DNA of 64,000 bases, from contig CAJFCV020000002.1 in NCBI GenBank assembly GCA_904066235.2, positions 11,160,001-11,224,000 of the forward strand, in the 5' to 3' direction. Shown piece after piece: positions 816-49,575 of this stretch (its first letter is position 1; each line of letters begins with the position of its first letter). This DNA is from Bursaphelenchus xylophilus. Lineage: Eukaryota; Nematoda; Chromadorea; Rhabditida; Aphelenchoididae. The notes beneath the pieces were generated by a model that saw only the letters and a program-made list of their open reading frames with translations, did not search any database and was not told the DNA's origin. The position numbers were made by a program, and so were the translations under genes.

Positions 816-1650
816 GTGCAACGAAAACAACGAAATCGGCTGCACCGTGCAAGAAAAAGTGAAAAAGAAAATTTCGCACAGTGCAATCAAAAAAATATCT
901 CGTCGCGACAAATGGACTCAATTTCCCTTTGCACCGTGCAAAAAACAGTAAAATTTTTTGCACTGTGCAGACAAAAAATTTTCAAAATATTTGAAGCGAC
1001 TGCACAGGGCAAAATTTTGTCGCGGCGACACATCGGCCGAATTTTCCCACCGCACCGTGCAAAAAACAATCAATTTTCCGCACTGTGCAGACAAAAAAAT
1101 TTCAAAACTTTTGAAGCGATTGCACTGTGCAAAATTTTGTCGCTGCGACAAATCCCCGGAATTTTCCCACCGCACAGTGCGAACATTTTTCTCAATTTTT
1201 CGCACTGTGCAGACAACGAAGTTTTCAAAACATGTCAGTCGATTGCACTGCGCAAAAATTTGTCGCCGCGACAAATTCCCGGAATTTTCTCACCACACAG
1301 TGCGAACATTTTTCTCATGTTTTTCGCACTGTGCAGACAAAAAAATCAAAACATTTGAAGTGATTGCACAGTGCGCAATTTTCAAGCAGATTTGTCGCCG
1401 CGACAAACCCCCGGAATTTTCCCACCGCACCGTGCAAAGATTCTTATCGATTTTTTCGCACTGTGCAGACGAAAAAAGTTTTCAAGACATGTCAGTCGAT
1501 TGCACTGTGCAAAATTTTCATAAAAATTTGTCGCCGCGACAAATCACCGGAATTTTCCCACCGCACCGTGCAAAGACCTTTATCGATTTTTTCGCACTGT
1601 GCAGCAAGATTGCCCTCCAAATCAAATCAAATGGGGATTTTTGCACGGTG
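816..1650. repeat. GCAC-N-GTGC palindrome cluster with ~120-bp higher-order units
   Basis: About 19 copies of GCACTGTGC/GCACAGTGC/GCACCGTGC lie here. From about 900 on they are organised in six units of roughly 115-140 bp, each also holding a second palindrome, TTGTCGCCGCGACAAAT, and a CCCACCGCAC segment. Open frames across the cluster are artefacts of the tandem units. Confidence 0.85.
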
Positions 1651-2054
1651 CGGTTTAATCCGCCCTAATCATCGGTCAATATTCAAATAAATGGGGCGAT
1701 TTGGCCGGCCCGCATTCCCTCGAATTTGTTGGGGGGATCGGCGAAAAAATTGATCCGAAAAGTGGATCGAAAAAAGTTTTCGGCCGCTTTACGTCGGGCC
1801 CGCAGGTAAAGCGGATTCGGAAGGGAAAGCGGGCCCCCCGAGAGAGGCCGAAAGGAGTGAGAAATGAGTTTAAATTGGCACTCCGATCAAGTGGAAATTA
1901 ACGGAGAAGGGGGCCGTGGACAAAAGTTTGGGTAAAACGGGAGTGAATCGAGCGATTTTTGGTGGACTCACTGCACTGTGCGGGAATTTTAATTTAGAAT
2001 TTTTTGAGGGAAAATATTTTTTTAGGGGCTAAAAAATCTTGTTTAGAAATCAAA
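1651..2054. other. GC-rich single-copy island, function unknown
   Basis: About 250 bp (1690-1930) is clearly richer in G+C than its surroundings and free of the palindrome motif. A 66-codon open frame crosses it but has no recognisable domain or splice context. Similar islands adjoin other palindrome clusters (32.1, 33.1, 47.4, 48.2 kb). It may be a promoter or enhancer. Confidence 0.35.
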
Positions 2055-3365
2055 ATTTTCCGCACAGTGCAAAAAATTCCACCCCAAAAATTTGTTGCAC
2101 AGTGCAAAAAAATCCCTAAAATCCCATCGCACGGTGCAAAAAACTTGCCAAAAAAATCCTTGCACAGTGCCAAAAAAATCCCCCTCCAAATTTTTTTTTT
2201 GCACAGTGCACAAAAACTTTCTTAAACCCATCCGCACAGTGCAAAAATTGTCGCTTCCAAATTCCCCCCGCACTATGCAAAAACATCCCCACAAAAATAT
2301 CGCCGCACAGTGCAAAAAATGTCGCCTCGAAAATTTCGCCGCACTGTGCACAAATTCTTGCAAAAAATCTAAACGCACAGTGCAAAAACTTTCCCACAAA
2401 ACTCTTTCGCACAGTGCAAAAAATGTCGCTCGAAAATTTCACCGCACAGTGCAAAAAATGTCGCTCGAAAATTTCACCGCACAGTGCAAAAAATGTCGCT
2501 CGAAAATTTTCCCGCACAGTGCAAAAAATGTCGCTCGAAAACTTCCCCGCACAGTGCAAAAAATGTCGCTCGAAAATTTCACCGCACAGTGCAAAAAATG
2601 TCGCTCGAAAACTTCCCCGCACAGTGCAAAAAATGTCGCTCGAAAATTTCACCGCACAGTGCAAAAACTTTCCCACAAAACTCCTTCGCACAGTGCAAAA
2701 AATGTCGCTCAAAAACTTCCCCGCACTGTGCAAAAAATGTCGCCCGAAAATTTCCCCGCACAGTGCAAAAATGTCGCTCGAAAATTTCCCCGCACAGTGC
2801 AAAATATGTCGCTCGAAAAATTTCTTCGCACAGTGCAAAAACTTTCCCACAAAACTCCTTCGCACAGTGCAAAAAATGTCGCTAGAAACTTTTCCCGCAC
2901 AGTGCAAAAAATGTCGCTCGAAAATTTCACCGCACAGTGCAAAAAATGTCGCTCGAAGATTTCACCGCACAGTGCAAAAAATGTCGCTCGAAAACTTTCC
3001 CGCACAGTGCAAAAAACGCCGCTCGAAAGTTTCCTTGCACTGTGCAAAAAATGTCGCTCGAAAACTTCCCCGCACAGTGCAAAAAATGTCGCTCGAAAAT
3101 TTCACCGCACAGTGCAAAAAATGTCGCTCGAAGATTTCACCGCACAGTGCAAAAAATGTCGCTCGAAAATTTCCCCGCACTGTGCAAAAAATGTCGCTCG
3201 AAAATTTCCCCGCACAGTGCGAAAAATGTCGCTCGAAGATTTCACCGCACAGTGCAAAAAATGTCGCTCGAAAACTTCCCCGCACAATGCAAAAATATCG
3301 CTCGAAAATTTTCCCGCACAGTGCAAAAAACTCCCTGAAAACCCCGCCATTGCACAGTGCGAAAC
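2055..3365. repeat. 35-bp minisatellite built on the GCACAGTGC palindrome
   Basis: About 38 palindrome copies occur, and from 2409 to 3290 almost every one is exactly 35 bp from the next. The unit is GCACAGTGCAAAAAATGTCG followed by CTCGAAAATTTCACC. Spacing loosens at the left end. Long open frames in several frames on both strands result from the regular unit and give low-complexity peptides, so no gene is called. Confidence 0.92.
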
Positions 3366-3750
3366 GCAACGATTTATCGCGGGCTTCCGTGCGGAAAAAG
3401 AAAACGGAGGAAAAATCTTTGATCGCCTCGACTTTTCCCGCATTTGGCCGCCGAAAAGCGGCCAACTGACGGGACGCTTTGGGGAACGCAAAAGCGAGGT
3501 CAGAAATTCGGAACAGCTAATGGGATGGGATGAGGAATATGAGGTGTGAAACAAAGGGTACAAAGGTAAATTGTTTTGAGAAGAAATGAACTTTCGCTTT
3601 TTTTTGACGAGAAAAGGTCAAACAATAATTTTTTGCAAGCACAATCAACGCTCTGAACAACAACTCGGAAGGGATCAAAAAACAAATTTTTGCCAAAATT
3701 TTACCTCCATACAACGAAACCCTTTTATAACGAAGGGATGGATGTTAGTA
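3366..3750. other. GC-rich island followed by AT-rich DNA
   Basis: The first 140 bp are G+C-rich, palindrome-free DNA adjoining the minisatellite; the rest is AT-rich. I see no splice-bounded exon. Confidence 0.35.
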
Positions 3751-3751
3751 T

Positions 3752-18202: not shown

Positions 18203-20202
18203 TCAGTCGTAGTTACCGGGAAATTCGAGTCTTGCAGCGACACTGGGGCCAAATTTTTCTCTGGTCCGTTCGATTTCAGCCTGAAAATTGAAAAATTATT
18301 TTTTTCGCACGGTGCAGTTGAAAAAAATTGAAATAAATTTGCACTGTGCTGAGGGCCAAGATAATGGCAAATTTTGCACAAGTGAATGAGAAATATACTG
18401 ACATACTATGCTGAAAACATCAAGCTCGAAATTTTACCAAAGGCTCTAAAAATCACGTTTCATTTTCCATGGCCGCACTGTGCAAAAAACGAAAAGAAAA
18501 ACTCACTCTTCCCGGCCATTTTGCATATGGATCCATTACAATTGGGTCTTCAGGTGCTGTAAGGTGGTCAAAAAGTCTACATATTGCCCTGCCAATTCCA
18601 CAAACCCAATCTATCGCATCTCCAATTGCATTCCCAATATTTCTTGTGATTCCGAGCTCTTCATTGACAATAAGAAGAAGATAACATGTTACCAGGATTA
18701 TTAGTAACTGTCGAACGGTTATATTTCCTGGAAAAATAAGGTCAGTAATTTTTCGAAACATTTGGAGACTTATGGAAGCTTTCGTATAAAATGTCACCCT
18801 TCGTATAAAATGTCACCCGCGCCTGATTTATGGACAGAAAATGTCGAATTTTGAGCATAACCTAGAAGGGAAAATTAAGTTCATGAATGATTTTTTGATA
18901 CTTCTAAAGAAGATTCTTCGTATAAAATGTCACCCGCAGTCTGCGCCCAGACAAAAGTGTGAAATAGTGAAAGTATTGAAGAGAACACTATTGTTCACGA
19001 AAAATATTAGTAGTTCATGTATTTTTCGCTTAATTTTGGAATCATAGCCTTACTAGGGAAGTGTACAAACGAACCCTCACCAAATGGCAAGTGATATACA
19101 CCATTGGAAAGCCCTTGAAAAATGATGCAAGATACCATTTTCATTTTTTGCAGAATGCCTTTCCGCGACGACATACTGTAAATTTCATTATTTTTAGGTC
19201 ATTTCGCAACAAAAATCTTTTTTTCTCTTGGGCAGGAAAAAATCCTCGAAGAGGGTTGCTTCAATAGTGCAGTGGTTGCTGAGCAGGCTGATAAGCCAAA
19301 CCAAGCTAGGTTCGATTCCCAGCTTGGGCAAAAACATTTTGCGTTCTTACAGTTAGGATAATATTTGAATTAAGCTTTTACAAACGCTTTAATTTTTCTA
19401 GAAAACGGTCGATTACGGTTAAAACCATCAAACTTACATGTTTTTCAAAATTAAAAAAAGTGAAAAGTGTTTTTTCACGTTATGGCTGTTTAAAACCAGT
19501 AAATATCATATGTAAAATGGTTTTACTGGCACGCGCCAAGCTCCATAATGATTCTTAGGCCAACCTAGCAGCAATATTTACCATTTAGCGTTTTGAAATA
19601 AGATTAATTTTGCGCCACAGCAGATATTGTAACTACTTAAGGGACAAATCAACCGTTTATAATTTTTTGCCCTGAGGCATTCTGCAAAAAATGAAAATGG
19701 TACCTTTCATCATTTTTCAAGGGCTTTCCAATGGTGTATAACACTTGCCATTTGGTGAGGGTTCGTTTGTACACTTCCCTAGTTAGGGGAAATTGCGCTT
19801 TTAAGTGAAAAATTGATAAAAAATTTTTTATTTTTGATGGAAAATTGATGCAGAACCAGGGGAAATAAAATAGAATTTTCCACCTACACCGTATTTTAAA
19901 ATTATTGCTGCTAACAGTAGTCCAATTATCTTTTATAAAAAAATTTTTTTTTCTTCAAATTTTTTGCATTTTTCTTATTTTTCCGTCAAACAATTGCTTT
20001 GAAAACAAAAAAATAGAGCTTACAATTTCGCATAAAGGCACTTACTATCCAAAAATCGTTTCCATCTCGTTGTCCGCTTCAATTTCCGAGCAGGTTCGGC
20101 CACATAAACAGGTGGATCGCTCTCCATCTTGTCCTCCTTGACTAAAGTCGAGTCCTGTGAGTAAACCGACTGGGTTTCGTCCGGCAATTTTTTGTAGTCC
20201 AT
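18203..20202 (-). CDS. MDY-family single-pass membrane protein B with PPxY motif
   Basis: Exons (minus) 20202-20046, 18727-18507, 18280-18203; phases 1 and 0; 151 aa. Exon 1 has exactly the same length (157 nt) as in gene A. The sequence starts MDYKKLPDETQSVYSQDSTL and has PPVY at residues 30-33, the same position as in A. The basic RTTRWKRFLDRNITVRQ precedes a hydrophobic segment (LLIILVTCYLLLIV). The C-terminal region is longer than in A and ends with an Arg/Glu-rich exon (AEIERTREKFGPSVAARLEF). Intron 1 holds a 730-bp MITE; intron 2 holds three GCAC-N-GTGC motifs; a cluster of the motif lies immediately upstream of the start codon. Confidence 0.8.
18296..18486. repeat. three GCAC-N-GTGC motifs in intron 2 of MDY gene B
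   Basis: GCACGGTGC (18308), GCACTGTGC (18342) and GCACTGTGC (18475). This is the leftmost reappearance of the motif after a 15-kb gap. Confidence 0.7.
19053..19782. mobile_element. PIF/Harbinger-like MITE (730 bp) with TTA target duplication
   Basis: Terminal inverted repeats begin CTAGGGAAGTGTACAAACGA and match the right end over roughly 90 bp, including AAATGGCAAGTG, GGAAAGCCCTTGAAAAATGA and GAAAATGGTA. The element is flanked by TTA on both sides (19050-19052 and 19783-19785), the usual PIF/Harbinger duplication. It contains no transposase and carries a tRNA-like sequence inside. It lies within intron 1 of MDY gene B. Confidence 0.75.
19265..19330 (+). pseudogene. tRNA-like sequence inside the Harbinger-like MITE
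   Basis: TAGTGCAGTGGTTGCTGAGC resembles an A-box arm and GGTTCGATTCCCAGC is a good B box. CTGATAAGCC lies where an anticodon arm would be. The structure does not close as a cloverleaf, so it is a relic or a Pol III promoter fragment. Confidence 0.4.
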
Positions 20203-20254: not shown

Positions 20255-20775
20255 TTGCACGGTGCGAAGCAATTTGGAAAATCCGCACTGTGCGGAAAAA
20301 TAATCATCAAATTGCACTGTGCAGGGAGGAAAATTTCAGTTGAGATGTGAAAAATATTAAAGCTAAGACTCTTTCTCATCAAATTCTCAAAAAATTTTTT
20401 GATTTTTTAAAATACGATTAACCGGAATTTGTATTCAAAATTTTGCACTGTGCGGAAAAACAATCGTCAAATTGCACTGTGCAGGGTGGAAAATTTCAGT
20501 TGAAATGTGAAAAATGTTAAAGCTGAGACTCATCTGACCAAATTCTCAAAAACGTTTTTGATTTTTTAAAATACAGCTGGTCGAAATTTGTATTCAAAAA
20601 ATTGCACTGTGCGAAAAAATAATCTTCAAATTGCACTGTGCAGGGCGGAAACCTTCAATTGTAATGTAACAAATATTAAAAAAGAGACATCCTCTGACAT
20701 GTCTGAAAACAGTTTTTGGATTTTTTTAAAATACGAAACTTGGTACTTTGCGCCTAAAAAATTGCACTGTGCAAT
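20255..20775. repeat. GCAC-N-GTGC cluster upstream of MDY gene B, three ~165-bp units
   Basis: Each unit has two palindromes about 30 bp apart (GCACTGTGCGGAAAAACAAT, then TTGCACTGTGCAGGG), then GGAAAATTTCAGTTGA, GACTC...AAATTCTCAAAAA and TTTTTAAAATACG. Units begin near 20280, 20443 and 20600. The cluster starts about 60 bp upstream of the gene's ATG. Confidence 0.85.
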
Positions 20776-21384: not shown

Positions 21385-23474
21385 TCAGTTTTTGTTGTCC
21401 AAAGCGTCCAGCTGATCGCGATACCTGGGGTCGTTTTCGATCTCACTTCTCCAGCGATACGTCTGAAAATCGAATTTTGTATTTTTTTTGACGAAAAACC
21501 CGATTTGAACATGCACAGTGCAAATTTCGAAACTTTTTTCTACCGCACAGTGCAAGGAAAAATATTCTTTTTTCGTCGCACAGTGCAAGCAGGAAAATTC
21601 TCTATTTTCGCACAGTGCAATGTCCAAAAGTTTTTGTTCCGCACAGTGCGTGCCGGTAAACTAAAATTTTGTTGCACCGTGCAAATTTCGAACCTTTTTT
21701 CTTCCGCACAGTGCAAGCAAAAAAATCTGATTTTGTCGCGCGATGCAAGAAAAAAGAAAATAATTTTTCGCACGGTGCGAAACAGGCGACAATTGTGGGT
21801 CACTTTCTTCTCGCACCGTGCAAAAAGAAAGATTGCGATTTCTGCACTGTGCAAAGTAAATTTTTTCAAATCACGCACTGTTCGAAAGCCAAAATAATTT
21901 TTCGCACTGTGCAGAGAAAAAAAATTGTAACTGTCGCACAGTGCATTACCAAAAATTTCCTTGTTTTGTTTTGCACGGTGCAAAATCCAAGACCGTTTCG
22001 TCCGCACGGTGCGACAGCCGAAAATGATTTTTTCGCACCGTGCAGTCGTCAAAAATAAGAAAAAAAATGTTTTTTATGGTGGCGTGAAAATTTTTCCACT
22101 TGTCTTTTTTGTTCTTTGCACTGTGCAAACTCTAAAAATTAAAAAAAAAAACTTTTTTAAAAAACTCACCTCCAATCCAGTCAACGGGTCTCTCACCAAA
22201 ATTGGTGATTTTTCGTATCCTAAAAGATTCGCCAGCCCTTCGCCAAACCGAGACATGACACGATCGCGCGCCCGACGAGCTTTGTAGCCAATACTGTACT
22301 CGGAATCAATGAACGAATATATAGAATAGACGAGAAGGACGATCAAGACGTGCTTCACAGTGATTTTAGCTGAAATTGAGGGATTATTTATTGATTATAA
22401 AGGTAATTTTAGCCAAAATTGGTTTTCCTCGAGAGGAACCCCTCGTTGAGAGGAACCCCTCATCGAGAGGAACCCCTCGTCGAGAGGAACCCCTCGCGAG
22501 GGGTTCCTCTCGATTTTTCCGAATATGGAGGAAATTTTTCGATGTAGGGGGTTTCGAGGGCGGGGATTTCAAAAATGATGTTAATTTTTTCTGATTTTTA
22601 CTTTTTTTCTTAACTAGTAGTGTTAAAAAGTAACTTTTTGAAATTTCTCTAAAAATACTGGATATAGGGGTTTTCGAGGGTGCTGATTTCGAAAATCATG
22701 TTAGCTTTCCTCTTTATAGTACTATCTGGTACTATGCAGTACGAGGTGAAAATATGGCTTTTGGCGTTAATGGTGTTGTTTTGACGCTTAGTACTCCTCA
22801 AAAACACGTTTTAAATAATTGGTACTGTTTAGTACTGTCTGGTACTATGTAGCACAAGGTAAAAATTTAGCCTTTAGGCGTTAGTGGTGTTGTTCTGTTG
22901 CTTAGTACTCCTATTTTCACCTTGTACTACATAGTACCAGACGGTACTAAACAGTACCAATTATTTAAAACGTGTTTTTGAGGAGTACTAAGCGTCAAAA
23001 CAACACCATTAACGCCAAAAGCCATATTTTCACCTCGTACTGCATAGTACCAGATAGTACTATAAAGAGGAAAGCTAACATGATTTTCGAAATCAGCACC
23101 CTCGAAAACCCCTATATCCAGTATTTTTAGAGAAATTTCAAAAAGTTACTTTTTAACACTACTAGGTAAGAAAAAAAGTAAAAATCAGAAAAAATTAACA
23201 TCATTTTTGAAATCCCCGTCATCGATTACCTCTATATCCAACATTTCCTACTCGGGGGTTCCTCTCAACGAGGGGTTCCTCTCAACAAGGGGTTCCTCTC
23301 GACGAGGGGTTCCTTTCGATGGCATTCGCCAAAATTGGGCTTACTCTGCAATAATTTCCTCAGTTTTTCGCATTTTCTTGGGGCTTTTGCCTCGGGCAAT
23401 GGAATATTTATTTTTTCCTCGAATTTCTCATTACCCTCCTCTTTGGAGGCCGCGTCCAGCTTTTGGTAGTCCAT
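21385..23474 (-). CDS. MDY-family single-pass membrane protein C (no PPxY)
   Basis: Exons (minus) 23474-23345, 22369-22170, 21462-21385; phases 1 and 0; 135 aa. The N-terminus MDYQKLDAASKEEGNEKFEE is shorter than in A and B and has no PPxY, only IPLPEAKAP. RKLLQTKITVKH precedes the TM segment (VLIVLLVYSIYSFI), matching T-K-V/I-T-V-R/K-H of gene A. The last exon (TYRWRSEIENDPRYRDQLDA) is charged. Intron 1 is almost wholly a giant palindrome; intron 2 is filled with GCAC-N-GTGC motifs; another motif cluster lies upstream. Loss of PPxY suggests functional divergence within the family. Confidence 0.8.
21510..22130. repeat. GCAC-N-GTGC cluster filling intron 2 of MDY gene C
   Basis: About 19 copies, spaced 25-40 bp, in all four centre variants (GCACAGTGC, GCACTGTGC, GCACCGTGC, GCACGGTGC). 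Spacers are AT-rich and mostly unrelated to one another, unlike the minisatellite arrays. Confidence 0.88.
22430..23325. repeat. giant ~900-bp palindrome forming most of intron 1 of MDY gene C
   Basis: The left arm (about 22430-22866) and right arm (about 22914-23325) are near-perfect complements, e.g. CTGGATATAGGGGTTTTCGA against TCGAAAACCCCTATATCCAG. The loop is about 48 bp (22867-22914). The outer ends hold tandem GAGAGGAACCCCTCGTC-type units. Intron splice sites are at 23344 and 22370, close to the stem base. Confidence 0.9.
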
Positions 23475-23549: not shown

Positions 23550-23905
23550 TTCGCACAGTGCAAAAAAAATTTCTGCACAGTGCGAATAAAAAGGAAAAAA
23601 GATCCAAAATTTTCCGCACAGTGCGGAAGAGAAAATCAAAAAGCATCGCACAGTGCAAAGGGAGAGTCGAAGAAGCCTACTGCACTGTGCAAAACCGGCG
23701 ACAAAAATGGAATTTCATTGCACAGTGCGAATTGAGAAACGGAAAAACTTACTGCACTGTGCAAAAAATTTTTGCTGAATTTTCAGCCGCACTGTGCAAA
23801 ACTGGCGATAAAAAACAAAATTTTTTTGCACTGTGCAAAAAAATCTTCAAAATTATTGATTGCACGGTGCAAAAATCGATTTGAAAATACCGCACAGTGC
23901 AGACC
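23550..23905. repeat. GCAC-N-GTGC cluster upstream of MDY gene C
   Basis: About 13 copies spaced 20-40 bp, starting about 75 bp upstream of the gene's ATG (23474), the same arrangement as at gene B. Confidence 0.85.
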
Positions 23906-32624: not shown

Positions 32625-32995
32625 TCTGCACAGTGCAGATTGAATTTTTCAAAAATTTTTTGCACTGTGCATGAAATTGAAAATTGCATCGTACTATCTG
32701 AATACGATGCAATTTACTTTTTTGTTGGCTCGGATATGATCTAAAAGGTCCTTTTCATAATTTTAGTTTAGATGACAGTAAAATTTTGCATTCTACACAG
32801 TGCAATAGACAAAATAAAATCGACCGCACAGTGCGAAAAAAATAAAATTGTAAATAGAAGAGGTAATATGGAGACGTTTGGCTAGTTCGATAGCAAGGAA
32901 AATTTTAAGAGTACCTTTCAATGATACTATCAAAACATTATACCAAATTTCGGCTACTGCACTGTGCAATAATCAAAAAATTTTTTTTGCACTGT
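32625..32995. repeat. GCAC-N-GTGC cluster upstream of ast-1
   Basis: About six or seven copies, loosely spaced. Confidence 0.8.
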
Positions 32996-33179
32996 GCAGT
33001 CTAAATTATCGAAAGATTTGTATTCAACCCCCCAAAAAGTATAGAAAACCCATTCTCGTACGCTTTACACGCCACCGTAACCCGATATCAGTCACAACAC
33101 CCGCTTCTCTTCGTGGATTCTGTAGCCTTCGACGGAATCCGGCCCTGCGGCCGAAACGAAAAAAGATTGTCCGCCTCTG

Positions 33180-34374: not shown

Positions 34375-35275
34375 CTGCACGGTGAAATATCCGGCTTAAA
34401 AAAATACTTGAATTGCACTGTGCAGTGGAAAAAAATCGATTTTTTTGCACTGTGCAGTGAATTATCGGTTTTTGCACAGTGCAGTCAGATCAGTGGAGTC
34501 GCAAGAAGACTGCCAGTGCATTTTTCGCGACAAAAAATGATTGCACTGTGCAAAAATAAAAGGGGTTTTAAATCGCACTGTGCAACGGAAAAAATGAATT
34601 TTTTCGCACTGTGCAGTGAATTATCGGTTTTTGCACAGTGCAGTTAGATTTCTGAACAAGCGATGACACTGCACAGTGCATTTTTTGCGGCAAAAATTGA
34701 TTGCACCGTGCGAAAACAAAAGTCATTTTGATTTGCACCGTGCAGTGAAAAAAATTCTATTTTTTCGCACTGTGCGAATGACGAGAGATTTTTGCACAGT
34801 GCAGTCAGATCGATGAAGTCGCGAGAAGACTGCACAGTGCATTTTTTGGGACAAAATTTGATTGCACCGTGCGAAAATACAAGTCATTTTGATTTGCACT
34901 GTGCAGATGAAAAAGATTCAATTTTTTCGCACTGTGCGAATGATGAGAGATTGTTGCACAGTGCAGTTGGATTTCCGAAGAAGCGATAAGATTGCACAGT
35001 GCATTTTTTGCGGCAAAAATTGATTGCACCGTGCGAAAACAAAAGAAATTTGGACTGCACTGTGCAAAGAATTTTCTTCAATTTTTCTGACTGCACTGTG
35101 CGAATCTTTGAAATTTTTGAATTTTTGATTTATGCAAATTTAATTTTAAACACTTTTTTCTGTTGCGCAAAATTTTTTACATTTCGCACAGTGCAAAAAA
35201 AAAATATTTCATTTTTCGCACGGTGCAGTCAGATTTTAGCCTATTTTTTCGCCCGCACAGTGCAAAAGAAAGTCG
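34375..35275. repeat. GCAC-N-GTGC cluster with four ~175-bp units
   Basis: About 26 copies. Units contain TGCATTTTTTGCGGCAAAAA, TTTTTTCGCACTGTGC and GTTTTTGCACAGTGCAGT, starting near 34500, 34675, 34835 and 35000. Palindrome positions are retained while intervening bases vary. Confidence 0.88.
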
Positions 35276-35320
35276 CATGCAAAGAGTAAACATTTCACCT
35301 TGCTTTTATAAGCCCAAACG

Positions 35321-35354
35321 ATGACATAATCGGCCGGAAGTTATATTGCGCAAC
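35321..35354. promoter_or_regulatory. candidate regulatory module: ATGACATAAT, ETS site, C/EBP-like palindrome
   Basis: ATGACATAATCGGCCGGAAG is followed by TTATATTGCGCAAC. CCGGAAGT is a consensus ETS site and ATTGCGCAAC is close to the C/EBP/bZIP palindrome. A very similar combination lies at 46699-46804. The sequence is G+C-balanced, between two motif arrays, about 3.8 kb upstream of ast-1. Confidence 0.35.
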
Positions 35355-35539
35355 CCTCGCCATTATGAGGTCGCCCACCGAGGCTGAGGTAATAAACAAA
35401 CCCGTAAACATGGAAACCAAACACAATGGACATGCACACACAAATCAAATACACCAACTCGGCGAAACACACTTTGATCTTCTGCTTTTGATGATGTAAA
35501 ATACGATATATGTGGTTTTATATATGTAAAAAAGATGTA

Positions 35540-37180
35540 TTTTGCACAGTGCGGAAAAGAATTTTGAGACTGCACTGTGCAATGAAGAAAATATTTTTTA
35601 TTGCACTGTGCAATGAAAAATTTTTTTTCTTTCTTCTGCACTGTGCAATGAAAAATTTTTTTTTGTTTTGCACTGTGCAATAAAACTTTTTTTTTCTGCA
35701 CTGTGCAATGAAAAGTTTTTCTTCTTACTTCTGCACTGTGCAATAAAAAATTTTTTCTCTCTTCTGCACTGTGCAATGAAAAATATTTTTTCTTTCTTCT
35801 GCACTGTGCAATGAAAAAATTTTTTTTTTTCTGCACTGTGCAATGAAAATATTTTTTTCTTTCTTCTGCACTGTGCAATGAAAAATATTTTTTCTTTCTT
35901 CTGCACTGTGCAATAAAAAATATTCTCTTTCTTCTGCACTGTGCAATGAAAAATTTTTTTTTCTTTCTTCTGCACTGTGCAACGAAAAAATTTTTTTTCT
36001 TCTGCACTGTGCAATGAAATTTTTTTTCTTTCTTCTGCACTGTGCAATGAAAAAAAATTTTTTTTCTTTCTTCTGCACTGTGCAATGAAAAATATTTTTT
36101 CTTTCTTCTGCACTGTGCAATGAAAAAAATTTTTTTTTTCTGCACTGTGCAATGAAAATTTTTTTTTCTTCTGCACTGTGCAATGAAAATATTTTTTCTT
36201 TCTTCTGCACTGTGCAATAAAAAATATTTTCTTTCTTCTGCACTGTGCAATGAAAAATTTTTTTTTCTTTCTTCTGCACTGTGCAACGAAAAAATTTTTT
36301 TTCTTCTGCACTGTGCAATGAAATTTTTTTTCTTTCTTCTGCACTGTGCAATGAAAAAAAATTTTTTTTCTTTCTTCTGCACTGTGCAATGAAAAATTTT
36401 TTTTCTTGTTTTGCACTGTGCAATGAAAAATTTTTTTTCTTGTTTTGCACTGTGCAATGAAAAATTTTTTTCTTTTTTCTGCACTGTGCAATGAAAAAAA
36501 AAATTTTTTCTTCTGCACTGTGCAATGAAAAATTTGTTTTCTTTCTTCTGCACTGTGCAATGAAAAAAAGTTTATTTTCTTCTGCACTGTGCAATGAAAA
36601 TTTTTTTTTCTTCTGCACTGTGCAATGAAAAATTTTTTTTCTTTCTTCTGCACTGTGCAATGAAAATTTTTTTTTCTTCTGCACTGTGCAATGAAAAATT
36701 TTTTTTCTTTCTTCTGCACTGTGCAATGAAAAAATTTTTTTTCCTTCTGCACTGTGCAATGAAAAATTTGTTTTCTTTCTTCTGCACTGTGCAATGAAAA
36801 AATTTTTTTTTCTGCACTGTGCAATGAAAAAAATTTTTTTTTTCTTCTGCACTGTGCAATGAAATTTTTTTTTCTTTCTTCTGCACTGTGCAATAAAAAA
36901 AAATTTTCTTTTCTTTCTTCTGCACTGTGCAATGAAAAATATTTTTTCTTTCTTCTGCACTGTGCAATGAAAAAATTATTTTTTTCTTCTACATTGTGCA
37001 ATGAAATTTTTTTCTTTCTTCTGCACTGTGCAATGAAAAAAATTTTTTCTTTCTTCTGCACTGTGCAATGAAAAAAATTTTTTTTCTTCTGCACTGTGCA
37101 ATGAAAAAAATTTTTTTTTTCTTCTGCACTGTGCAATGAAAAAAATTTTTTTTGATTGCACTGTGCAAAACGTTTTAGAT
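35540..37180. repeat. ~34-bp tandem array of the GCACTGTGCAATG palindrome (about 48 copies)
   Basis: Nearly every copy reads TTCTGCACTGTGCAATGAAA followed by an A/T tract and TTTCTTTC, spaced 30-38 bp. One copy is mutated (ACATTGTGC near 36990). Unlike the other clusters, the palindrome is always in the T-centred form on the plus strand and the spacer is polarised (AAAAATTTTTTTTC), so this is a homogenised tandem array. Very long open frames on both strands are artefacts (repeats of HCTVQKKK). Confidence 0.93.
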
Positions 37181-38485
37181 TTTTTGCACGGTGCGCAAGG
37201 CAGTTTTTTGCACTTTCCAAATTTTTCATTTTTCCTGCACTGTGCGAGAACAGACGTTCTGATTTTATTGCACAGTGCAGTAATCAAAAATTTCTTTTTT
37301 TTTGCACAGTGCAATAGTAAAGAATTGCTTTTTTTTGCACGGTGCGCAACTTTTTAACAAAAAAAGTTTATTAGAATGTCATTATTTGTCCTCCTGCAAT
37401 ACCTTTGCACTCTCCAAATTTTTCATTTGCCTGCACTGTGCGAGAACAGACTTTCTGATTTTATTGCACAGTGGGATAATAAAAATTTACTTTTTTTGCA
37501 CAGTGCGGATATTTTTGAAGACAAAATTGATGGGGGTATTTTTGAACGCCCTCAGGCAATGTTTTTGCACCTTCCAAATTTTTCATTTTTTCTGCACTGT
37601 GCGGAAAAAAATATTTCTATTTTACCGCACTGTGCAACCCTAAAATTTTTCCCTATTGACTTTGGCACTTCAAAAATTGCACTGTGCGATAAAGTCGATG
37701 CCAACTCGGAAAACAAGAGAGCCTGTTGCAGACAGATGGCTTAATTTCGATACCCATCCTGGTCGAATAAATTCGAAACCGTATCGAATGACAGGGTTGG
37801 CTAAAATGGAAGGCAAACAAATCGGGTGACATCTTTTGGATGATAATTTTGGAATTTTAGGGTATAAATAAAAATTATCAAATAAAATTAAAAAGAAAAT
37901 CCAATTTGAAAACAAAACTTTTGTTTTCTGCACAGTGCGAATTTTTTTTTTTTTTATTTATTTTTTTATCTTTTTTTTTATTTCCGCACCGTGCAGAAAA
38001 GCAGGAAAATTTGCACTGTGCAAAAAAGAGGCGGCCAGATCACTCTGCTAAATTTTTTTTGCCAAAAAATTCCGCACCGTGCAAAAAAAACAATTTTTTT
38101 ATTATTGCACTGTGCAATAAAATAAAAAAGTCTGTTCCCGCACAGTGCAGAAAAATTAAAAATTTTCGACAACGAAAACTTCTTGTCCGGAGGGCGTTTA
38201 GTACTACTACTATCAATTTTTCCTCCAACAATATCCGCACTGTGCAAAAAAGATAAAAATTTATTTCTGCACTGTGCAATAAAATAACAAAGTCTGTTCT
38301 CGCACAGTGCAGAAAAATTGAAAATTTTTGACAACGAAAGCTCATTGCCTGAGGGGTTTTTTATACTACCCTATCAATTTTTCCTCCAACATTATCCGCA
38401 CTGTGCAGAAAAATAATAAAATTTATTTCTGCACTGTGCATCCCAAATCCTCTCAATTTTTTGATTGCACAGTGCAAAAAAAAAT
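37181..38485. repeat. GCAC-N-GTGC cluster with ~150-200-bp units, partly inverted
   Basis: About 25 copies. Units with CTTTCCAAATTTTTCATTTT, GCGAGAACAGAC.TTCTGA and TTTTATTGCACAGTGC occur near 37200, 37410 and 37565; the reverse orientation (AAAGTCTGTTCCCGCACAGT) is seen near 38130 and 38290. A gap at 37690-37930 contains unrelated DNA. Confidence 0.85.
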
Positions 38486-38760: not shown

Positions 38761-41700
38761 CTATAAGTTAACGTAGGTTTTCTCTTCTTGTTCTTGCTTC
38801 AGGTAGTTGACGTAGGGGTTCATGATGTCGCGGAGGTCTTGAATTTCCAGTTCTGAAAGAAACAAGATGTATTTTGTGAAAAAAAAGTTTGTAGAAAATT
38901 TTGCACTGTGCGATGTGCAATTTGAATTGCACAGTGCACAAATTTCTTCGCTAAAAAACTGCACTGTGCAATATTTTTTAGCCTGCACAGTGCAAAAAAC
39001 TGTCGCAACTTTTTTTTGATTGCACAGTGCAAAAATTTATCGCAAAAAAATGTACGGTGCAATCAAAAAATTGACTCGCACAGTGCACAAATTTCATTGC
39101 TGAAAACTGCACTGTGCAATATTTTTTAGTCTGCACTGTGCAAAAAGTTCAAAAAAAAAACGCACAGTGCAATCAAAAAATTGATTCGCACAGTGCAAAA
39201 ATTTATCGCAAAAAAATGCACGGTGCAATATTTTTTAGCCTGCACAGTGCAAAAAAATGTCGCACAAAATGCACAGTGCACTCAAACTATAAATTGCACA
39301 GTGCGAAAAATTTACCGCAAAAAATGCACGGTGCAATCAAAAAATTGAATCGCACAGTGCAAAAATTTATCGCAAAAAAACGCACAGTGCAATCAAAAAA
39401 TTGACTCGCACAGTGCGAAAAATTTATCGCAAAAAATGCACGGTGCAAATCAAAAATGTGACTGCACAGTGCAATAAAATTCTTTCAAAAGACGCACAGT
39501 GCAACCAGTTTTCTCAATTTGCACAGTGCGAAAAATTTATCGCAAAAAATGCACAGTGCAAATCAAAAATGTGACTGCACAGTGCAATAAAATTCTTTCA
39601 AAACGACGCACAGTGCGATAATTTTTTCAACTTGCACGGTGCGAAAATTTGATCTCAGAAAAAATGCACGGTGCAACAAAAATTTTTCGAAAGACGCACA
39701 GTGCGATCAGGTTTTCAACTTGCACTGTGCAAAAAAATCAAAAAAAAAAAAAAAATCCAAAAAAAACCTACGACAATTAGGGAACTGTCCAAGCATTTCA
39801 TTCAGATCCTTCGAGCTCATTTTTTCGCTGGCCGTTAGATTCGACGTTACATAAAGTCGGTCTTCCGGGTTCAACGACTTTATGCAGATCACCATTGATC
39901 GCAACAAGCACCTGGCTCCGTATTCGGAGGATTGGAAGATGATTTTCGAGTCGATACTTGTGACTGTTCCGGCCAATTCGAGCTTAATATTGCTGGGGCA
40001 AAGGGCTGTGAAGACTCGGAGGAGCTCAATGCAACTGTCCATGGCTCCGCACAGGGATTTGGAGGGGTTCTGAAAATCAAATATTTGGTTGGCCCACCGT
40101 ATTTTACCTATAAAGCTCATTTTCAATGATTTTCAAAACAAATTTTGAAACTTTTAAAAAAAAATATATTACACTTGACATCTGATAAAAAATCCAATAT
40201 TTTAGTTCATTCCAGGTCTACTGGCCCTGGAAAAAATCAAAACCAAATAAAAGATACCGTATTTTATCAATCTATCAAAATTTTCACTTATTTCTACAAC
40301 ATTTCAGCAAGCTATGACCAAAACTTTATATTGCACTTGACCTCAGATTTTTGATCGAATATCTTTCACACAAAAAACTTTAAAAATCCACAAATAAGGG
40401 GCTGCATTTATTTTTTCGTATTTTACCTTATAATAACCATTTCAAAAAAATCCGGGGGAAATTTACCAAGTTATGACAGAAATTTTATATTATACTTGAC
40501 ATCTGATGAAAAATCTCATATCTTTCTAACTTTTTTCTTTTTCTACCGAAACTATGAATCTACAGAGAGTATAAATCTTATTTTACTCGATCTTATTCGT
40601 TTTGTATCTGTTTGACCTTATACTAACGAGCAATGACCAAAAATTTGTATACCTTTGATGTCAAGTTTCATATTTCTAAAGTCTCGCCGTAATGACTTAA
40701 AAAGAACAAGAATGAGCCCAGCGTATTTTACAACTAACATTGTTTTTATATCCTTCAAAATTCCCGACTTGCTTACCTTGTTCAAGACGGCCTGTCCCAA
40801 GAATCTCAAGCCGAGATGGACCAGTTGTTGGAAGAAGACTGCCTCTTCCTCGGGGAGTCTCTGCGGGTTTCCACAGGCTCCACGAACCTCTATAGCCCTC
40901 TTCCAGCACCGCGCAACCCTCTCCACATTCCTATAATCCAATCGTTGATAAATTGTGCCCTCCGGTCTGAAGACAACACATTCCAGGATGTCGTTGAGCG
41001 AAACGGCGGAGGCGTCGCGTGCTTTTTGCGGCTGGAAGATCAAACTCGAGCCCATCCCGCTGCTCAGGGGGGATTTGTTGAGCTCGCAGATGATCAGAAT
41101 CGACACCTCCAGGAGCTGGGTGAAGATCTTTTCGCTTTGCGAATTCAGGACTTGTGAGGACTTTCCGTGCACGTAGAAGGCGACGGGGAAGACTTGACGG
41201 ATACTTTGGACCTCACGCGCATGGAACAGGACATAATCCTGAAAGAAATTTGGGGTATTTCTGGATTTTATTTTTTGCTCCCATCTTGTCATAGCTTTAT
41301 AAATCATTCAGAACTTTGTAATTTCTATATGCAAAATCGAAAAACATCAACTATCACTTCTCTTTAGTGCTATTAGACCTCAAAATCCATGCGGAATAAA
41401 AATTTATGACCAGATTTTAGTTGGCATACCTAAAGTAATATAATTTTTTGTAAAAACTATTATCACACTGACTCTTTTTGGTTTTAAAAGGAGCTATTGG
41501 TCCTAAATGCTCAATATCACTGAATTTTCCCTCAATTACACATCAAAATTGCACTTTTTTCGTCATTCCACCAACCTACTACCTAAAGTAATATAATTTT
41601 CTTGTAAAAACTATTATAAATATGAGGAGTTTGACTTCAAAAGGATCTATTACTCCTAAATGATCAATATCACTCCCTTTTCCTTCAATTAGACATCAAA

Positions 41701-44700
41701 ATTTCCACTTTTTGGTCATTTCCCCAACCTACTACCTAAAGTAATATAATTTCCCCAAAAATGGTCTCCAAATGTCTTCTTCCTTGCTGAATCGCCTAAA
41801 AACATAACAACAAAGTCAAAGGCTCACCACTCTGGTCGTATTCATCACCAACAAATTCGTAATCAGCTGCAAAATCGGCAAACTGAGCAGGGAGGTCTGT
41901 GGATTCGGAGTTCCTTTCCGACTCAAATCCTCGAGACAAATGAGGATCCCAAAACAACATTGGAGGACCGATTGGAGCTCCTGGTCCTTGAGAGTCTTGG
42001 AATCGGACGAGCAGGCGACCAGGACGTTCAGGGCGCACGTATTTATCGAGACAAAGTCCTCTTGTTTCACGAATTTCTTGTTGAAGAGGCTGAGAAAAGC
42101 GGCCAATTTCTGAAAAATGGCCAATTTTAGATCCGAAATTTTGCCTAAAAATTATAAACAAGGTCTCAAAGTGTTTGAAACTTACCACAAACCCATTTTT
42201 ATTGAAGATCGTCGGGTCCAAATCGACTCCTCTTGCGTCGAACAAGAAATTCAGCGATTTCAGCCATGCTTTTATGAAACAAATCGGTCCTGCGGGATTC
42301 CTCGCCGTCTCCAGCACATTCTGCCAATTTATCACGCGTCTGAGGACAAATTCCGTGATCGGCTTCTGCTTTTCCAGCTCATTCTGCAAAAATTTTTCAG
42401 TAATTTTGTTACCTAAAATTTCAAAAAAAAAAAATCAAAAACTTTCAAGAACTAACCAAACACTGTCTATTTCCTTCGACTGAGTCCATAAACAGGTAAT
42501 GCAAGTGGCGTTCCGCATCCGAACCGAGGTCTTTTACGTCCAGTAGCAAGTACAATATTTCGGGTGATCGGATCTCGGCCAGCGCCTCCGGTGGCGGGTT
42601 CAAATGTTTCTTGGCGTGATACAAAGGGCAGATGACTAGTTCGATGGCGCCGGGGACGCGGACTGCCGAGAATAGGAGGGCGTGGATGTACTTGTACTTG
42701 GCGACATTCGGATTTTCCTGGAAAATGCAAATTTTATAGTCTGAAACTGAATCAAAAAAATTTTTTAAGGCTATAAATATCCTTATGACACTCTATTCGT
42801 CCAATCACCATCGAAAAAAACCCTGAAAATCGCTGGAAAACAAAAATTTTAGGGAAATTCCAAAAAATCCGTCATGATGACACTTTTAATCTTGCGGAAT
42901 TCCGGAAAAATTTAAATTGGCACTTCTTATGTATTGTTATAAGACCCCATACAAAAAATTCTGTTGTAAAATACGCACATTATCCTTTAGATTTTTTAAA
43001 GGATGACGGATTTTCTGGAATTCCGTCAAAATCTCTCAAATTTTGGATTTTTTTTTAATTTTGATAAACACAATTTTAATTTTCAGACAAAATAATCCTT
43101 TTCCAATCACTTACCGCCATCTGAAGGGCCGTGGAGTAGCGGTAGACCAACCGGATTGTTCGGAGGTAGAGCCATACCTAAAACAATATAAATTTTTGCC
43201 TCAAACTTGATAAAAAGGCGACATTAAAATTTTTTTGTAAAAGCTAAGACGTCTTGGACCAATTTTCATTTCTTTTTTTGACAATCCAAGCCCTCTAGAT
43301 GACAAAGTGACATTTTATACGATGAAAGGTGTACGAAAAATTACATTCTTGAAATTTCCCCTAAAAGAAAGCTTCAAATTTTTCCGGCGTATGTATCAAA
43401 ATAGATTTACAGACGTCTAAAATTACTCTAGAGCCAATTTTTAGACCAATTATATCACACTAGGCAACTTCGGACATTATTTTAGACAAAATTCCTCTTC
43501 AAACCCCAAAAAAGTCCAATTAATACTCCCTCAACCCCTTAAATACCCACCGCTTTCTTCAAAACCTCCAATCTCTCGTTTCCTTGCGGTAGACGTTTCA
43601 TTTCTTCGGTGACCAAGTGCAATTTCTCTGCTGTGTACCCAAAAACTTCTTGAAGTCGCTGCGGCGCCGTTGGGTCTTTCCCAATGACATGTCGATATGT
43701 TTCGAAGAGTTTTTGAAACAGGTCATTGCCAAGCAAGTTCACATCCATATCCGAATCCGCCAAGGATTCAATAATGTCGCCTAATCGGACCATTGGGTCT
43801 TTTTCCATGCATTTTCCTGTCTGAAAATGGATAGTAAGTGGTTATTTTGAGAATCTGTGGTGTTTTAGTAACTTCCAAATCCTTTTTCATCACATTTCCT
43901 AACCGAAATTACCATTTTTAGATTTTTCAAAATTTTGCACTGTGCAAATGACAAAATTGGATTTTGCACAGTGCGGAAAAGCAAAAATCGAAAATAAATT
44001 TTTGAATATTGCAAAATGATCTTTACGACTTCTGTTCTATAGTCCAATTTTTCAAAATCAAATTTATGCACGGTGCAGCGACCAAAAAATAAAACTGCAC
44101 TGTGCGGATGACAAAATTGGATTTTGCACAGTGCGGAAAAGCAAAAATTGAAAATTAATTTTTGAATATGAAAAATACTCTTTGCAATTTCTATTCTATA
44201 GTCCAATTTTTCAAAATCAAATTTATGCACGGTGCAGCGACCAAAAAATAAAACTGCACTGTGCAGATGACAAAATTGAAATTTGCACAGTGCGGAAAAG
44301 CAAAAATTGAAAATTAATTTTTGAATATTGAAAAATACACCTTGTAACGTCGCTTGGAAAGCGAATTTTTTCGAACTCAACTTTATGCACCGTGCAGCGA
44401 CCAAAAAATAAAACTGCACTGTGCGGATGACAAAATTGCAATTTGCACAGTGCGGAAAAGCAAAAATCGAAATTTTAATTTTTGAATATTGAAAAATACT
44501 CTATAAGACATCTATTCTACACTGCAATTTTTCAAAATGAAATTCTTTGCACTGTGCAAATCGCGAAAATTTCAATTGCACAGTGCAAAAGAGAAAAAAC
44601 TTACAAAAACTTTCAAAAAAGCCAAATTTTTACCAAAAAATTTTTACAATCCACTTACCACTTCCGAACACATTGTTCCAGTCATCGTTGACTGCATTGA

Positions 44701-44889: not shown

Positions 44890-45251
44890 CTAAAATAAGA
44901 TAAATTTTAAGTCAAAACATGACAAAAATTGTTTCAAGAGCTCGAAAACAGATTCGCGACAATTAAAAATCTCATCCCACCTCAAAAAATATCAAAATTA
45001 TATTATATTTCATTGAAAATACAAAAATTTTGTCAAAATCCCCCTTAAAAATACAAATTTCACCCCGAAACTTCAATTTCTCCAGCCCACACATTTCCGT
45101 TTTCCCCCATCGTAGTCTATTTTATACCACAAACAAGTTTTTTCTGTTATATTTTGGCCCTTTCTTCTTTTCTCTGCGAAAAAACGCCGACTGCACTGTG
45201 CGGGTGGGTTTCCCTTTCGTTTGGAGAGAGGGGAAAACGCCGAACGGGTGT

Positions 45252-45323: not shown

Positions 45324-45328
45324 AAAGC

Positions 45329-46690: not shown

Positions 46691-46698
46691 AATGTTAC

Positions 46699-46959: not shown

Positions 46960-47415
46960 GTAATTTTGCACTGTGCAAAAATTTTTAAATTTGCACTCTG
47001 CGGTCAAAAAAAGTTTGCACTGTGCATTTCAAACGTCTCGCCGCACTGTGCAAAAATTTTTGCGACAAAGAAAATCCATTCTAAAATTCGCACAGTGCAA
47101 AAAAAATAAAAGTTTCAACGCACTGTGCGACTTTTTCGAATCTCGAAAACTGCACCGTGCAGACGATTTTGCTCCAAATCGCGCTCCGAAAACAACTTTT
47201 CTCGACAAAAAAGTTTGCACTGTGCATTTCAAACGTCTCGCCGCACTGTGCAAACCTTTTTGCGACAAAGAAAATCAAGTTTAAAAACCGCACAGTGCAA
47301 AAAAAATCAAATTTCAGCGCACTGTGCGATTTTTTCGAATCTCGAAACCTGCACGGTGCAGACGATTTTGCTCGAAATCGCGCTCCGAAAACAACTTTTC
47401 TCGACAAGACAGGAA
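46960..47415. repeat. GCAC-N-GTGC cluster with ~198-bp tandem unit
   Basis: Two full units and a partial third. Each has TTTGCACTGTGCATTTCAAA, CGTCTCGCCGCACTGTGC, TTTTGCGACAAAGAAAATC, GCGACTTTTTCGAATCTCGA and CAAATCGCGCTCCGAAAACA. Units begin near 47010 and 47210; the third part ends at 47405. Confidence 0.85.
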
Positions 47416-47640
47416 AGATCAGCCGTCCGTTTTTTGCGGCTGTCATTGAGGATGGGCGATCGGGCCAAATGAAGGTTTTGAGGCGCGCGCAAAACGAATG
47501 GAATGCCGTTTGGAGAGGGGGAGAGAAAGAGGGGCAGAGAGCGAGCGAGTGCCAATGTCGCGCCGCGTCCGGAAAATGAGTCGCAATGACTGGACGGCCG
47601 CGAAAACGATCGGAAATGAGGCTGTGCGATGAGCAAGAAC
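47416..47640. other. GC-rich island between palindrome clusters
   Basis: G+C-rich, purine-biased (GGAGAGGGGGAGAGAAAGAG) single-copy DNA with no palindromes and no splice-bounded exon. Confidence 0.35.
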
Positions 47641-47644
47641 CGGT

Positions 47645-48145
47645 TCTTTGCACTGTGCGGGAAACGGGATTTGAGTTTTTTTTGCACTGTGCAAAAAAAT
47701 TTTTGAGGTTTTGAAAATTGCACTGTGCAAAAATTTTTAAAAATTGCACCGTGCAAAAATCTTTGAAAATGCACTGTGTAAAAAATTTGAAGATCGCACT
47801 GTGCAAAAGTTTTTGAAAATTGCACTGTGCAAAAATTCTTGAAGATCGCACTGTGCGAAAAATTTTAGAAACTGCACAGTGCAAAATATTTTAAAGATCG
47901 CACTGTGCAAAAAAAATTGAAAACGCACCGTGCGGAAAAACCAAAAAATTGCACTGTGCGAAAATTTTTATAAACTGCACTGTGCAAAAAAATGTGAAAA
48001 TTGCACTGTGCGAAAAAATTTGAAGATCGCACTGTGCGAAAATTCTTATAAAGTGCACTGTGCAAAAATTTTTGAAGCTCGCACTGTGCAAAAATTTTTC
48101 GAAAACGCACAATGCAAAAAAATTTTTAAACCGCACTGTGCAATC
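47645..48145. repeat. GCAC-N-GTGC cluster, ~28-34 bp spacing
   Basis: About 17 copies, mostly TTGCACTGTGCAAAAATTTT or GATCGCACTGTGC, in alternating two-unit order. Confidence 0.88.
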
Positions 48146-48894
48146 AAAACACATGAAAAGCAGGAAATATCATCCCCAAAAAATTCCAAAACACCCCAAA
48201 AAAATTTGAAACCACACCATAACAGGCTTACTGGCCCCAGTTCTCGGCACTCCTTATTATTTACGGTCCCTTCCTTTGCGCGTCCACTCTGCCCAGATCA
48301 TGTGTCGAATTGTTTGGAAACGGACGCCGTCGCGCCGAATGGGCGATAAAAATTTCCTGCCCTCGCTCGCCCCTCCACTTTTTTCGTGCCTTCGATTCAA
48401 ATTTGGGGGGGCGAGTGATTCGGACTGACATCAGCCCCTCGAAGGCACAATTACATTGCACAATGGTCACTCAAGAGAGCAGTTGGAGAGAGTCTGGATC
48501 TGGGGCTCGACCGAATTTTTCGTGATCGAGTTAGGTTGTTGTGACAAACAATGGGTTCGGAATTTCGCACAGTGCAGTCAAAAAAAAACAATTGTTTTTG
48601 CACAGTGCAGTCAAAAAAAAATGTTTTTTTTTTGCACAGTGCCGGTATTTTTGGACAGAAAAAAATAATTTTCTGTAGAAAAATTCTGCTCTGTATTTTG
48701 AATAGAGCACCATTTTTTAACATAAAAATCAAAAAAAAAAAAAAAAATCAAAAAAATTTCAAATTTTTGGTCTTGAAAAATTAATAATTTCTAATAAAAT
48801 TTCATAATCAGATCAGTCATAAAAATTTTCAATCTAAATTTATCCCAAATTTCACCGAAATCCGACAATTTTCTCCCGAGAAATTCACATTTTG
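48146..48894. other. GC-rich island (48230-48540) with three palindromes at its right edge
   Basis: 48230-48540 is G+C-balanced single-copy DNA (CCCTCGCTCGCCCCTCCACT). Palindromes follow at 48565, 48599 and 48633, then AT-rich DNA. No gene is seen. Confidence 0.4.
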
Positions 48895-49575
48895 AATTTT
48901 GCACCGTGCAAAACAAAACATAATTCAATTCGCACAGTGCAGACCGAAAGTGTGTCGAAAACAGTTCTTTTGCACTGTGCGAGCAAAAAAAGAAATTTTG
49001 TTTTCTCAAATATCGCACAGTGCAAAAAAACCGTCAAGTTTTTGCACAGTGCAAACCAAAAATTTGAGCGCACAGTGCAGAAAAAAGCACACTTGCGACA
49101 ACTGCACAGTGCAGGAAACCCGACCGAGTTTTTGCACAGTGCAAAAAAATTGAATTCGCACAGTGCAGACAAAAGCACACGTGCGACAACTGCACGGTGC
49201 AAAATGGAAACCGAATTTTCTTCGCACAGTGCAGACCAAAAACCGGCTGCACGGTGCAAAAAAAAGCACACTTGCGACAACTGCACAGTGCAGAAAACAC
49301 GGGCGAGTTTTTGCACAGTGCAAAAAAATTGAATTCGCACAGTGCAGACCAAAGACTGACTGCACAGTGCAGAAAAAACACACGTGCGACAAACTGCACG
49401 GTGCAAAAGCAAAGTGCGACAACTGCACAGTGCAAAAAAATCATTTCGCACAGTGCAGACCAAAGACTGACTGCACAGTGCAGCAAAAAGCACCGCGCGA
49501 CAACTGCACAGTGCAAAATGGAAAACAAAATTTCTTCGCACAGTGCGGAGAAAAAATCATTTCGCACAGTGCAAA
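48895..49575. repeat. rightmost GCAC-N-GTGC cluster
   Basis: About 31 copies with units containing AAAAAGCACACTTGCGACAA, CTGCACAGTGCAG and AATTCGCACAGTGCAGAC. After 49575 the motif does not occur again in the window. Confidence 0.9.

What the first reader, a model, noticed from the sequence alone, without database searches (positions are those of the whole stretch)
816..49575. About 300 copies of a short palindrome, GCAC-N-GTGC, in at least fifteen clusters
The core GCAC(A/T/C/G)GTGC, usually TTGCACTGTGCAA with T tracts on one side and A tracts on the other, is an odd-length palindrome with a degenerate centre. It is found in intergenic DNA and in introns. Different clusters have unrelated spacers, yet the 9-mer stays nearly perfect with very few mutated copies (e.g. 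GCACTATGC 2269, GCACAATGC 3282 and 48108, ACATTGTGC 36990). A symmetric site with a free central base is what a homodimeric DNA-binding protein would read. Clustered short motifs of this kind are known from nematode chromosome pairing centres, bound by zinc-finger proteins (HIM-8/ZIM family), though their motifs are different. A selfish satellite is the main alternative.
Basis: partly seen in the sequence, partly recalled or inferred. Interest (0 to 1): 0.88.

Follow-up and report, generated by a model that had tools for sequence, protein, structure and literature searches.

The report
Arm-wide palindrome arrays in pinewood nematode
The chromosome arms of the pine wood nematode carry tens of thousands of copies of one short mirror-symmetric DNA word, and its letters stay fixed while the DNA around them drifts, which suggests that an unknown protein reads the word.

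Summary
In detail: 301 perfect GCACNGTGC copies against 0-2 in shuffles. The window lies in Bursaphelenchus xylophilus, whose genome holds 41,616 copies against 178 for the reversed word. Better consensus: Y-GCAC-N-GTGC-R.

In 11 aligned higher-order arrays the eight core bases differ in 24 of 1,501 pairwise comparisons, spacers in 1,166 of 4,633, the centre base in 64 of 188. A free base between two frozen halves argues against homogenisation or shielding and for sequence-specific recognition. No neighbouring copies start closer than 20 bp (0 of 489).

Of 118 sampled places none lies in the central 0.33-0.63 of a chromosome; a control word has 8 of 30 there. All six chromosomes and both arms carry them, unlike pairing centres.

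Best reading: docking sites for an unidentified dimeric DNA-binding protein, kept site by site on chromosome arms. [quoted passage not shown] The protein, its occupancy and sister-species conservation are untested. Two searches of open-licence papers for the letters found no nematode description.

The parts
842..1651 (.). motif cluster, 17 copies, period about 120 bp, with GTCGCNGCGAC palindromes between them
1973..3360 (.). motif cluster, 37 copies, mostly 35-bp period
18307..18483 (.). 3 copies
20257..20772 (.). 8 copies, period 159 bp, about 55 bp upstream of a putative minus-strand start codon near 20200
   Evidence: start codon read by eye
21513..22126 (.). 16 copies, many about 32 bp apart, with largely decayed spacers, between two putative minus-strand exons (21378-21462 and 22169-22371)
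23553..23900 (.). 11 copies with nearly unrelated spacers and no copy decayed by 1-2 substitutions, about 80 bp upstream of a putative minus-strand start codon
30193..30681 (.). 10 copies; spacers as unlike each other as spacers of other clusters; no copy decayed by 1-2 substitutions; apparently in an intron (splice sites read by eye)
32628..32997 (.). 5 copies
34415..38475 (.). largest cluster, 94 copies, periods 161, 35 and 162 bp
38903..39730 (.). 29 copies, period about 113 bp
43937..44586 (.). 13 copies, period 160 bp, inside a putative intron (about 43821-44658) with GT...AG ends on the minus strand
45193..45201 (.). single copy about 50 bp before a tRNA-Trp gene
46968..48141 (.). 28 copies, periods 200 and 26 bp
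48567..49572 (.). 26 copies, period about 113 bp, with GCGAC words between copies
51341..63659 (+). exon matches of a 1,432-aa coiled-coil protein over 12 kb; no motif copy falls here (negative comparison)

Best explanation
The word Y-GCAC-N-GTGC-R is the binding site of an abundant, sequence-specific protein that reads two identical half-sites across a free central base, most simply a homodimer. Arrays of it on the chromosome arms grow and turn over as tandem repeats, but each site is kept by selection for binding. SHOWN: copy number, base-by-base constraint, the 20-bp minimum spacing in the stretches read, arm restriction of the sampled places. INFERRED: that the clusters are in introns and intergenic DNA (gene models by eye), that a protein binds, that it is a dimer, and that the arrays act as additive docking sites which set the chromatin state of the arms (heterochromatin or peripheral anchoring, or the opposite, licensing of germline expression).
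For: Eight long-period (100 bp or more) motif arrays of the window plus three at loci on C4, C2 and C1: core 24 of 1,501, centre 64 of 188, first flank 78 of 376, spacer 1,166 of 4,633 differences; core also has 3 gapped cells. Pooled sample: 504 perfect copies against 35 one-mismatch neighbours, about 1.7 of the latter expected by chance. In clusters 23553-23900 and 30193-30681 spacers have lost most or all resemblance while no copy decayed by 1-2 substitutions is seen. 0 of 489 spacings below 20 bp, 370 within 20-46. 118 of 118 sampled places lie outside 0.33-0.63 of the chromosome, 91 of 91 after merging neighbours; Fisher P 6.5e-6 against the control word, 8 of 30. By eye no compensatory change occurs in the aligned cores, so the letters and not just base pairing are kept.
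Against: No binding protein, occupancy data or expression data. Tandem repeats without the motif also concentrate in the arm samples of C6, so arm restriction may follow from where repeats survive. Selection on some 40,000 separate sites needs a small benefit at each one. Conservation is not absolute: genome-wide there are 18,654 one-mismatch words against 8,060 for the reversed word, so decayed copies may number about a quarter of the 41,616 intact ones if the reversed word gives the background; L040 has 3 one-mismatch sites beside 12 intact copies. The 118 places come from four flank contexts only. No cross-species test was possible.
Confidence: 0.5

Rival explanations
1. Satellite turnover box. 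A transposase-derived or recombination protein recognises the dyad and uses it to cut, exchange or amplify repeat units, so intact copies persist by selection among copies and not for host benefit, as proposed for the CENP-B box-like motif of Meloidogyne.
For: Related spacers within arrays are shared as whole modules (653 pairs alike in both halves) and half-shared pairs (126 of 5,099) are no commoner than between clusters (230 of 6,623), so exchanges respect motif boundaries. Meloidogyne satellites have junctions at conserved boxes (PMC3694981, passages). One CENP-B_N-type domain match is present in the genome, though that family also rings in two bacterial control genomes.
Against: In higher-order units with 2-5 motifs nearly every motif stays intact (14 of 15 column sets invariant in the four arrays; not all in the arrays), although one would suffice to copy the unit. 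Clusters whose spacers have lost resemblance show no sign of recent amplification yet keep the core. The site does not resemble the CENP-B box.
Confidence: 0.27
2. Transposon-borne regulatory sites. A Helitron or MITE family spread arrays of a transcription-factor site, as Helitron-related satellites did with a palindromic word in Caenorhabditis.
For: Helitron-related satellites built on the palindrome AGAANNTTCT are reported (PMC4595182, passages; their likeness to heat-shock elements is recalled). Several clusters lie just upstream of putative genes or in putative introns.
Against: Spacers of different clusters are unrelated (6 of 6,623 sampled pairs alike). I did not search systematically for shared element ends.
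Confidence: 0.12
3. Meiotic pairing centres of the HIM-8/ZIM kind.
For: Clustered short motifs on chromosomes, the same general idea.
Against: One motif on both arms of all six chromosomes, 3 copies in total in 12 terminal or near-terminal 10-kb pieces, tens of thousands of copies. Pairing centres lie near one end (PMC8455136, passages).
Confidence: 0.04
4. Ordinary young satellite or base composition, with no recognition of the motif.
For: Most copies are in tandem arrays.
Against: Core conserved against drifting spacers, free centre, shuffles 0-2.
Confidence: 0.03

Closest known systems
[quoted passage not shown]
   Same: A short motif kept in otherwise divergent satellites of a plant-parasitic nematode on holocentric chromosomes (PMC3694981 and PMC9673304, passages).
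   Different: 17 bp, and the word palindrome does not occur in either main text; long satellite monomers. Here an 11-bp dyad with free centre, mostly 20-46 bp spacing, about 41,600 copies, arm-restricted in the sample.
Helitron-related Caenorhabditis satellites with palindrome AGAANNTTCT
   Same: Tandem arrays built on a short palindrome (PMC4595182, passage).
   Different: Other sequence, a 2-bp centre, tied to a Helitron family; here spacers are unrelated between clusters.
Periodic An/Tn Clusters (PATCs) of C. elegans
   Same: Pervasive non-coding DNA, used in introns, rich in A and T tracts (PMC7725773 and PMC9071541, passages); arm enrichment is recalled, not read.
   Different: PATCs are defined by periodic A/T runs and not by a fixed word; here motif spacings show no peak near the helical period.
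C. elegans pairing centres (HIM-8/ZIM)
   Same: Clusters of a short DNA motif.
   Different: [quoted passage not shown] here both arms and one motif for all.
Frequent short motifs of holocentric nematodes (Subirana and colleagues)
   Same: Species-specific short words in satellites or dispersed, one of them a spaced palindrome, TGGCANNNTGCCA (PMC3634726, passages).
   Different: Highest frequency in their Table 2 is 24,492 (Brugia malayi), the others under 8,000; Bursaphelenchus is not in that table.

Membership tests
[quoted passage not shown]
   both arms of all six chromosomes in the sample; 3 copies in 12 terminal or near-terminal 10-kb pieces
HIM-8/ZIM pairing centre | bound by HIM-8/ZIM zinc-finger proteins | not tested
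   no HIM-8/ZIM sequence was run; PMC8455136 reports homologues in many clade V genomes, and Bursaphelenchus is listed as clade IV in PMC9071541
CENP-B box-like satellite motif | similarity to the 17-bp box YTTCGTTGGAARCGGGA | tested here: not met
   the core GCACNGTGC has neither TTCG nor CGGG (by reading; box sequence from PMC9673304)
CENP-B box-like satellite motif | conserved box in otherwise divergent satellites | tested here: met
CENP-B box-like satellite motif | CENP-B-type protein encoded | tested here: inconclusive
   one CENP-B_N match, E 4e-6, in the whole genome; the family also rings in 2 of 14 control genomes, both bacterial; binding unknown
PATC | A/T runs periodic with the helix | tested here: inconclusive
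   only motif spacings were tested, with no peak near 10-11 bp; the A/T runs themselves were not scored
PATC | protects germline expression | not testable with these tools
   no expression data
Tandem satellite DNA | head-to-tail copies of a unit | tested here: met
   TRF arrays; but clusters 23553 and 30193 have little or no spacer resemblance left

The most novel reading that the evidence does not exclude
One dimeric protein marks the arms of all six holocentric chromosomes through some 40,000 docking sites that evolve as satellites outside the site and as a strict regulatory code inside it. This would be a sequence-encoded arm identity.
Probability: 0.3. Interest if true: 0.88.

Novelty: new variant of a known kind. 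Interest (0 to 1): 0.74.

Why it matters
What distinguishes arms from centres on holocentric nematode chromosomes is, to my knowledge, an open question; here is a DNA word that follows that division. It also gives a clean case where constraint on a satellite can be read base by base, since the free centre serves as an internal neutral control, and it supplies a ready bait for finding the protein.

Tried and rejected
RNA hairpin: a 1-bp centre cannot loop, and no compensatory change was seen in the aligned cores, so a DNA site is likelier. Shielding from mutation or gene conversion of the whole site: rejected as sole cause because the centre base changes at least as fast as the spacers. Second palindrome GTCGCNGCGAC: only 306 genome-wide against 68 reversed; the plain word GCGACAA is a companion. 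Helical phasing of spacings: no peak. A first all-against-all BLAST also showed low core divergence (2.4-4.2% per position, 49% at the centre, 19.9% background), but it aligns on the motif itself, so I do not rely on it. A first control word was too rare to use, 4 places; its reverse gave 30. The ETS exon was too conserved to name the species. Literature: the letters were searched (4 papers; 8 papers); by title all are human, rodent or other medical studies, none opened. Searches on Bursaphelenchus repeats and chromosomes were seen only as the top 20 of 899, 15 of 1,787 and 12 of 1,775 papers; none listed was on this motif by title or abstract start.
Full report
Setting. The window is C2:11160001-11224000 of a 78.25-Mb genome in six chromosomes plus two small contigs. 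Seven exon-like pieces of one window gene, joined by me, match a 1,432-residue protein named Bursaphelenchus xylophilus (80% identity over 55% of the rough query; exon matches of 82-100%) on a contig of 12,140,115 bases, exactly the length of C2. The other hit is B. okinawaensis at 49%. GH45 matches (17 in this genome, 0 of 14 control genomes) agree with that genus from general knowledge.

Is it there. 301 perfect GCACNGTGC against 0-2 in 20 random resamplings. The word needs its 1-bp centre: other gaps from 0 to 11 give 0 or 1 copy each. Genome-wide there are 41,616 against 178 for the reversed word, so the window is about nine times denser than average. Pooled over 504 copies in 15 stretches, the centre is T 228, A 178, C 55, G 43; the flanking pair is pyrimidine/purine in 493 of 504; the next bases outward are mainly A. 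The consensus is therefore YGCACNGTGCR inside T-rich and A-rich shoulders.

Constraint. From the TRF list I cut eight motif arrays of 100 bp or more into copies: four and, later, four. Three further rows of such length (2062-2876, 35570-37168, 47711-48042), which look like multiples of 35- and 26-bp units, were not cut. Three of the four loci fetched were cut likewise (L037 on C4, L038 on C2, L040 on C1); L039 had no long period and was left out. Differences over all pairs of copies: core 0 of 469 and 16 of 776 in the window, 8 of 256 elsewhere; centre 51 of 156 and 13 of 32; first flank 68 of 312 and 10 of 64; spacer 1,028 of 4,013 and 138 of 620. Pooled: core 1.6%, centre 34%, flank 21%, spacer 25%. 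Gapped cells are not in these counts (3 in the core). Pairs of copies are not independent, so these are rates and not tests. Columns were called core if any copy was intact, so decayed copies count. In a motif-free array of similar divergence, 57558-58806 (25%), no 9-column window was invariant (0 of 177); in the seven other motif-free arrays 10-44% of windows were, so invariance alone is not proof. In the four arrays, 14 of 15 motif column sets were invariant, against 14%, 8%, 0% and 55% of other windows.

Age. In 23553-23900 and 30193-30681 spacers resemble each other hardly more than spacers of other clusters (0.50 against 0.49, 0.47 against 0.47; 10 and 6 spacers), yet no copy decayed by 1-2 substitutions is found (sites within 12 bp of a perfect copy and indels were not scored). 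The C8 contig (L016) is less clean: its two clusters have 3 one-mismatch and 18 two-mismatch sites, in GC-richer DNA. Genome-wide, one-mismatch words number 18,654 against 8,060 for the reversed word. Decayed copies may thus number about a quarter of the intact ones, fewer if the forward background is higher, as the window shuffle suggests (8.5 per 64 kb).

Spacing. 489 consecutive distances, none under 20 bp, 370 between 20 and 46. That fits a footprint of two helical turns. No helical phase was seen.

Where on chromosomes. Four rare-context patterns gave 118 places (17, 15, 46 and 40, each list complete). None lies in 0.33-0.63 of chromosome length; 91 remain after merging neighbours within 20 kb, on all six chromosomes and both arms. 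A control word had 8 of 30 in the centre. Copies do exist in centres: three perfect copies near C1 6.01-6.02 Mb in the capped list, two in the C6 sample at 7.1 Mb. Along C6, ten of the twelve samples between 5.0 and 12.77 Mb held 0-4 copies each; those at 9.9 and 10.6 Mb held 5 and 45. Twelve terminal or near-terminal 10-kb pieces held 3 copies. Tandem repeats without the motif are also denser in the arm samples.

Where relative to genes. The array at 43937-44586 lies in a putative intron with a GT donor and AG acceptor. 21513-22126 lies between two putative exons; 20257 and 23553 start about 55 and 80 bp upstream of putative start codons. These gene models are read by eye without protein support. 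The one gene mapped with a protein, 51341-63659, has no copy. One copy, 24804, lies in apparent coding sequence next to the ETS exon and may be chance.

How it works. Frozen halves around a free centre are hard to explain by gene conversion, shielding or youth, each of which would treat the centre like its neighbours. They fit recognition of the dyad. Whether recognition serves the host or only array turnover is open. That most motifs within multi-motif units are intact speaks for site-by-site maintenance; that spacers are exchanged as whole modules speaks for a role of the motif in turnover. I favour the first at 0.5, the second at 0.27.

Known relatives. [quoted passage not shown] The sequence, spacing and arm restriction differ, and the defining sequence similarity is not met. 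Papers were seen as search listings and passages only (PMC3634726, PMC4595182, PMC5748669, PMC13370393, PMC8455136, PMC9071541, PMC3694981, PMC9673304, PMC7725773).

Noticed in passing
window clusters and L016, L025, L037-L040: The word GCGACAA/TTGTCGC recurs in spacers: 13 of 21 clusters against 1.2 expected, and in the window 26 in 12.3 kb of cluster against 9 in 51.7 kb outside.
   Followed up: partly
window 541-680, 3761-3870, 4130-4280: Elements bounded by inverted copies of GTCGGGAAAATAA...; three in 4 kb, MITE-like (read).
   Followed up: no
window 22422-23330: Large inverted repeat flanked by 17-bp arrays TCGAGAGGAACCCCTCG and a near complement, between two motif clusters.
   Followed up: no
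L011 start and L029: About 160-bp satellite at the left end of C3 and right end of C1 (offsets of 160 in BLAST).
   Followed up: no
L023 602-1360, L026 263-1000, L032 5804-6575: GC-rich element with repeated GGCCCGGCCC runs, similar in several places including near a chromosome end.
   Followed up: partly
L016 (C8, a 14.5-kb contig): 60 motif copies in an unplaced contig, with 65 GCGAC/GTCGC words in its two clusters.
   Followed up: no
C1:97762-109468 (L001-L005): About 2.36-kb repeat units that mostly carry three motif copies at the same positions.
   Followed up: no
window 45193-45324: A single motif about 50 bp before a tRNA-Trp gene.
   Followed up: no
window 6006-6508, 55740-62022: Many tandem duplications of 126-163 bp without the motif, near nucleosome length, several between exons of the coiled-coil gene.
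   Followed up: no
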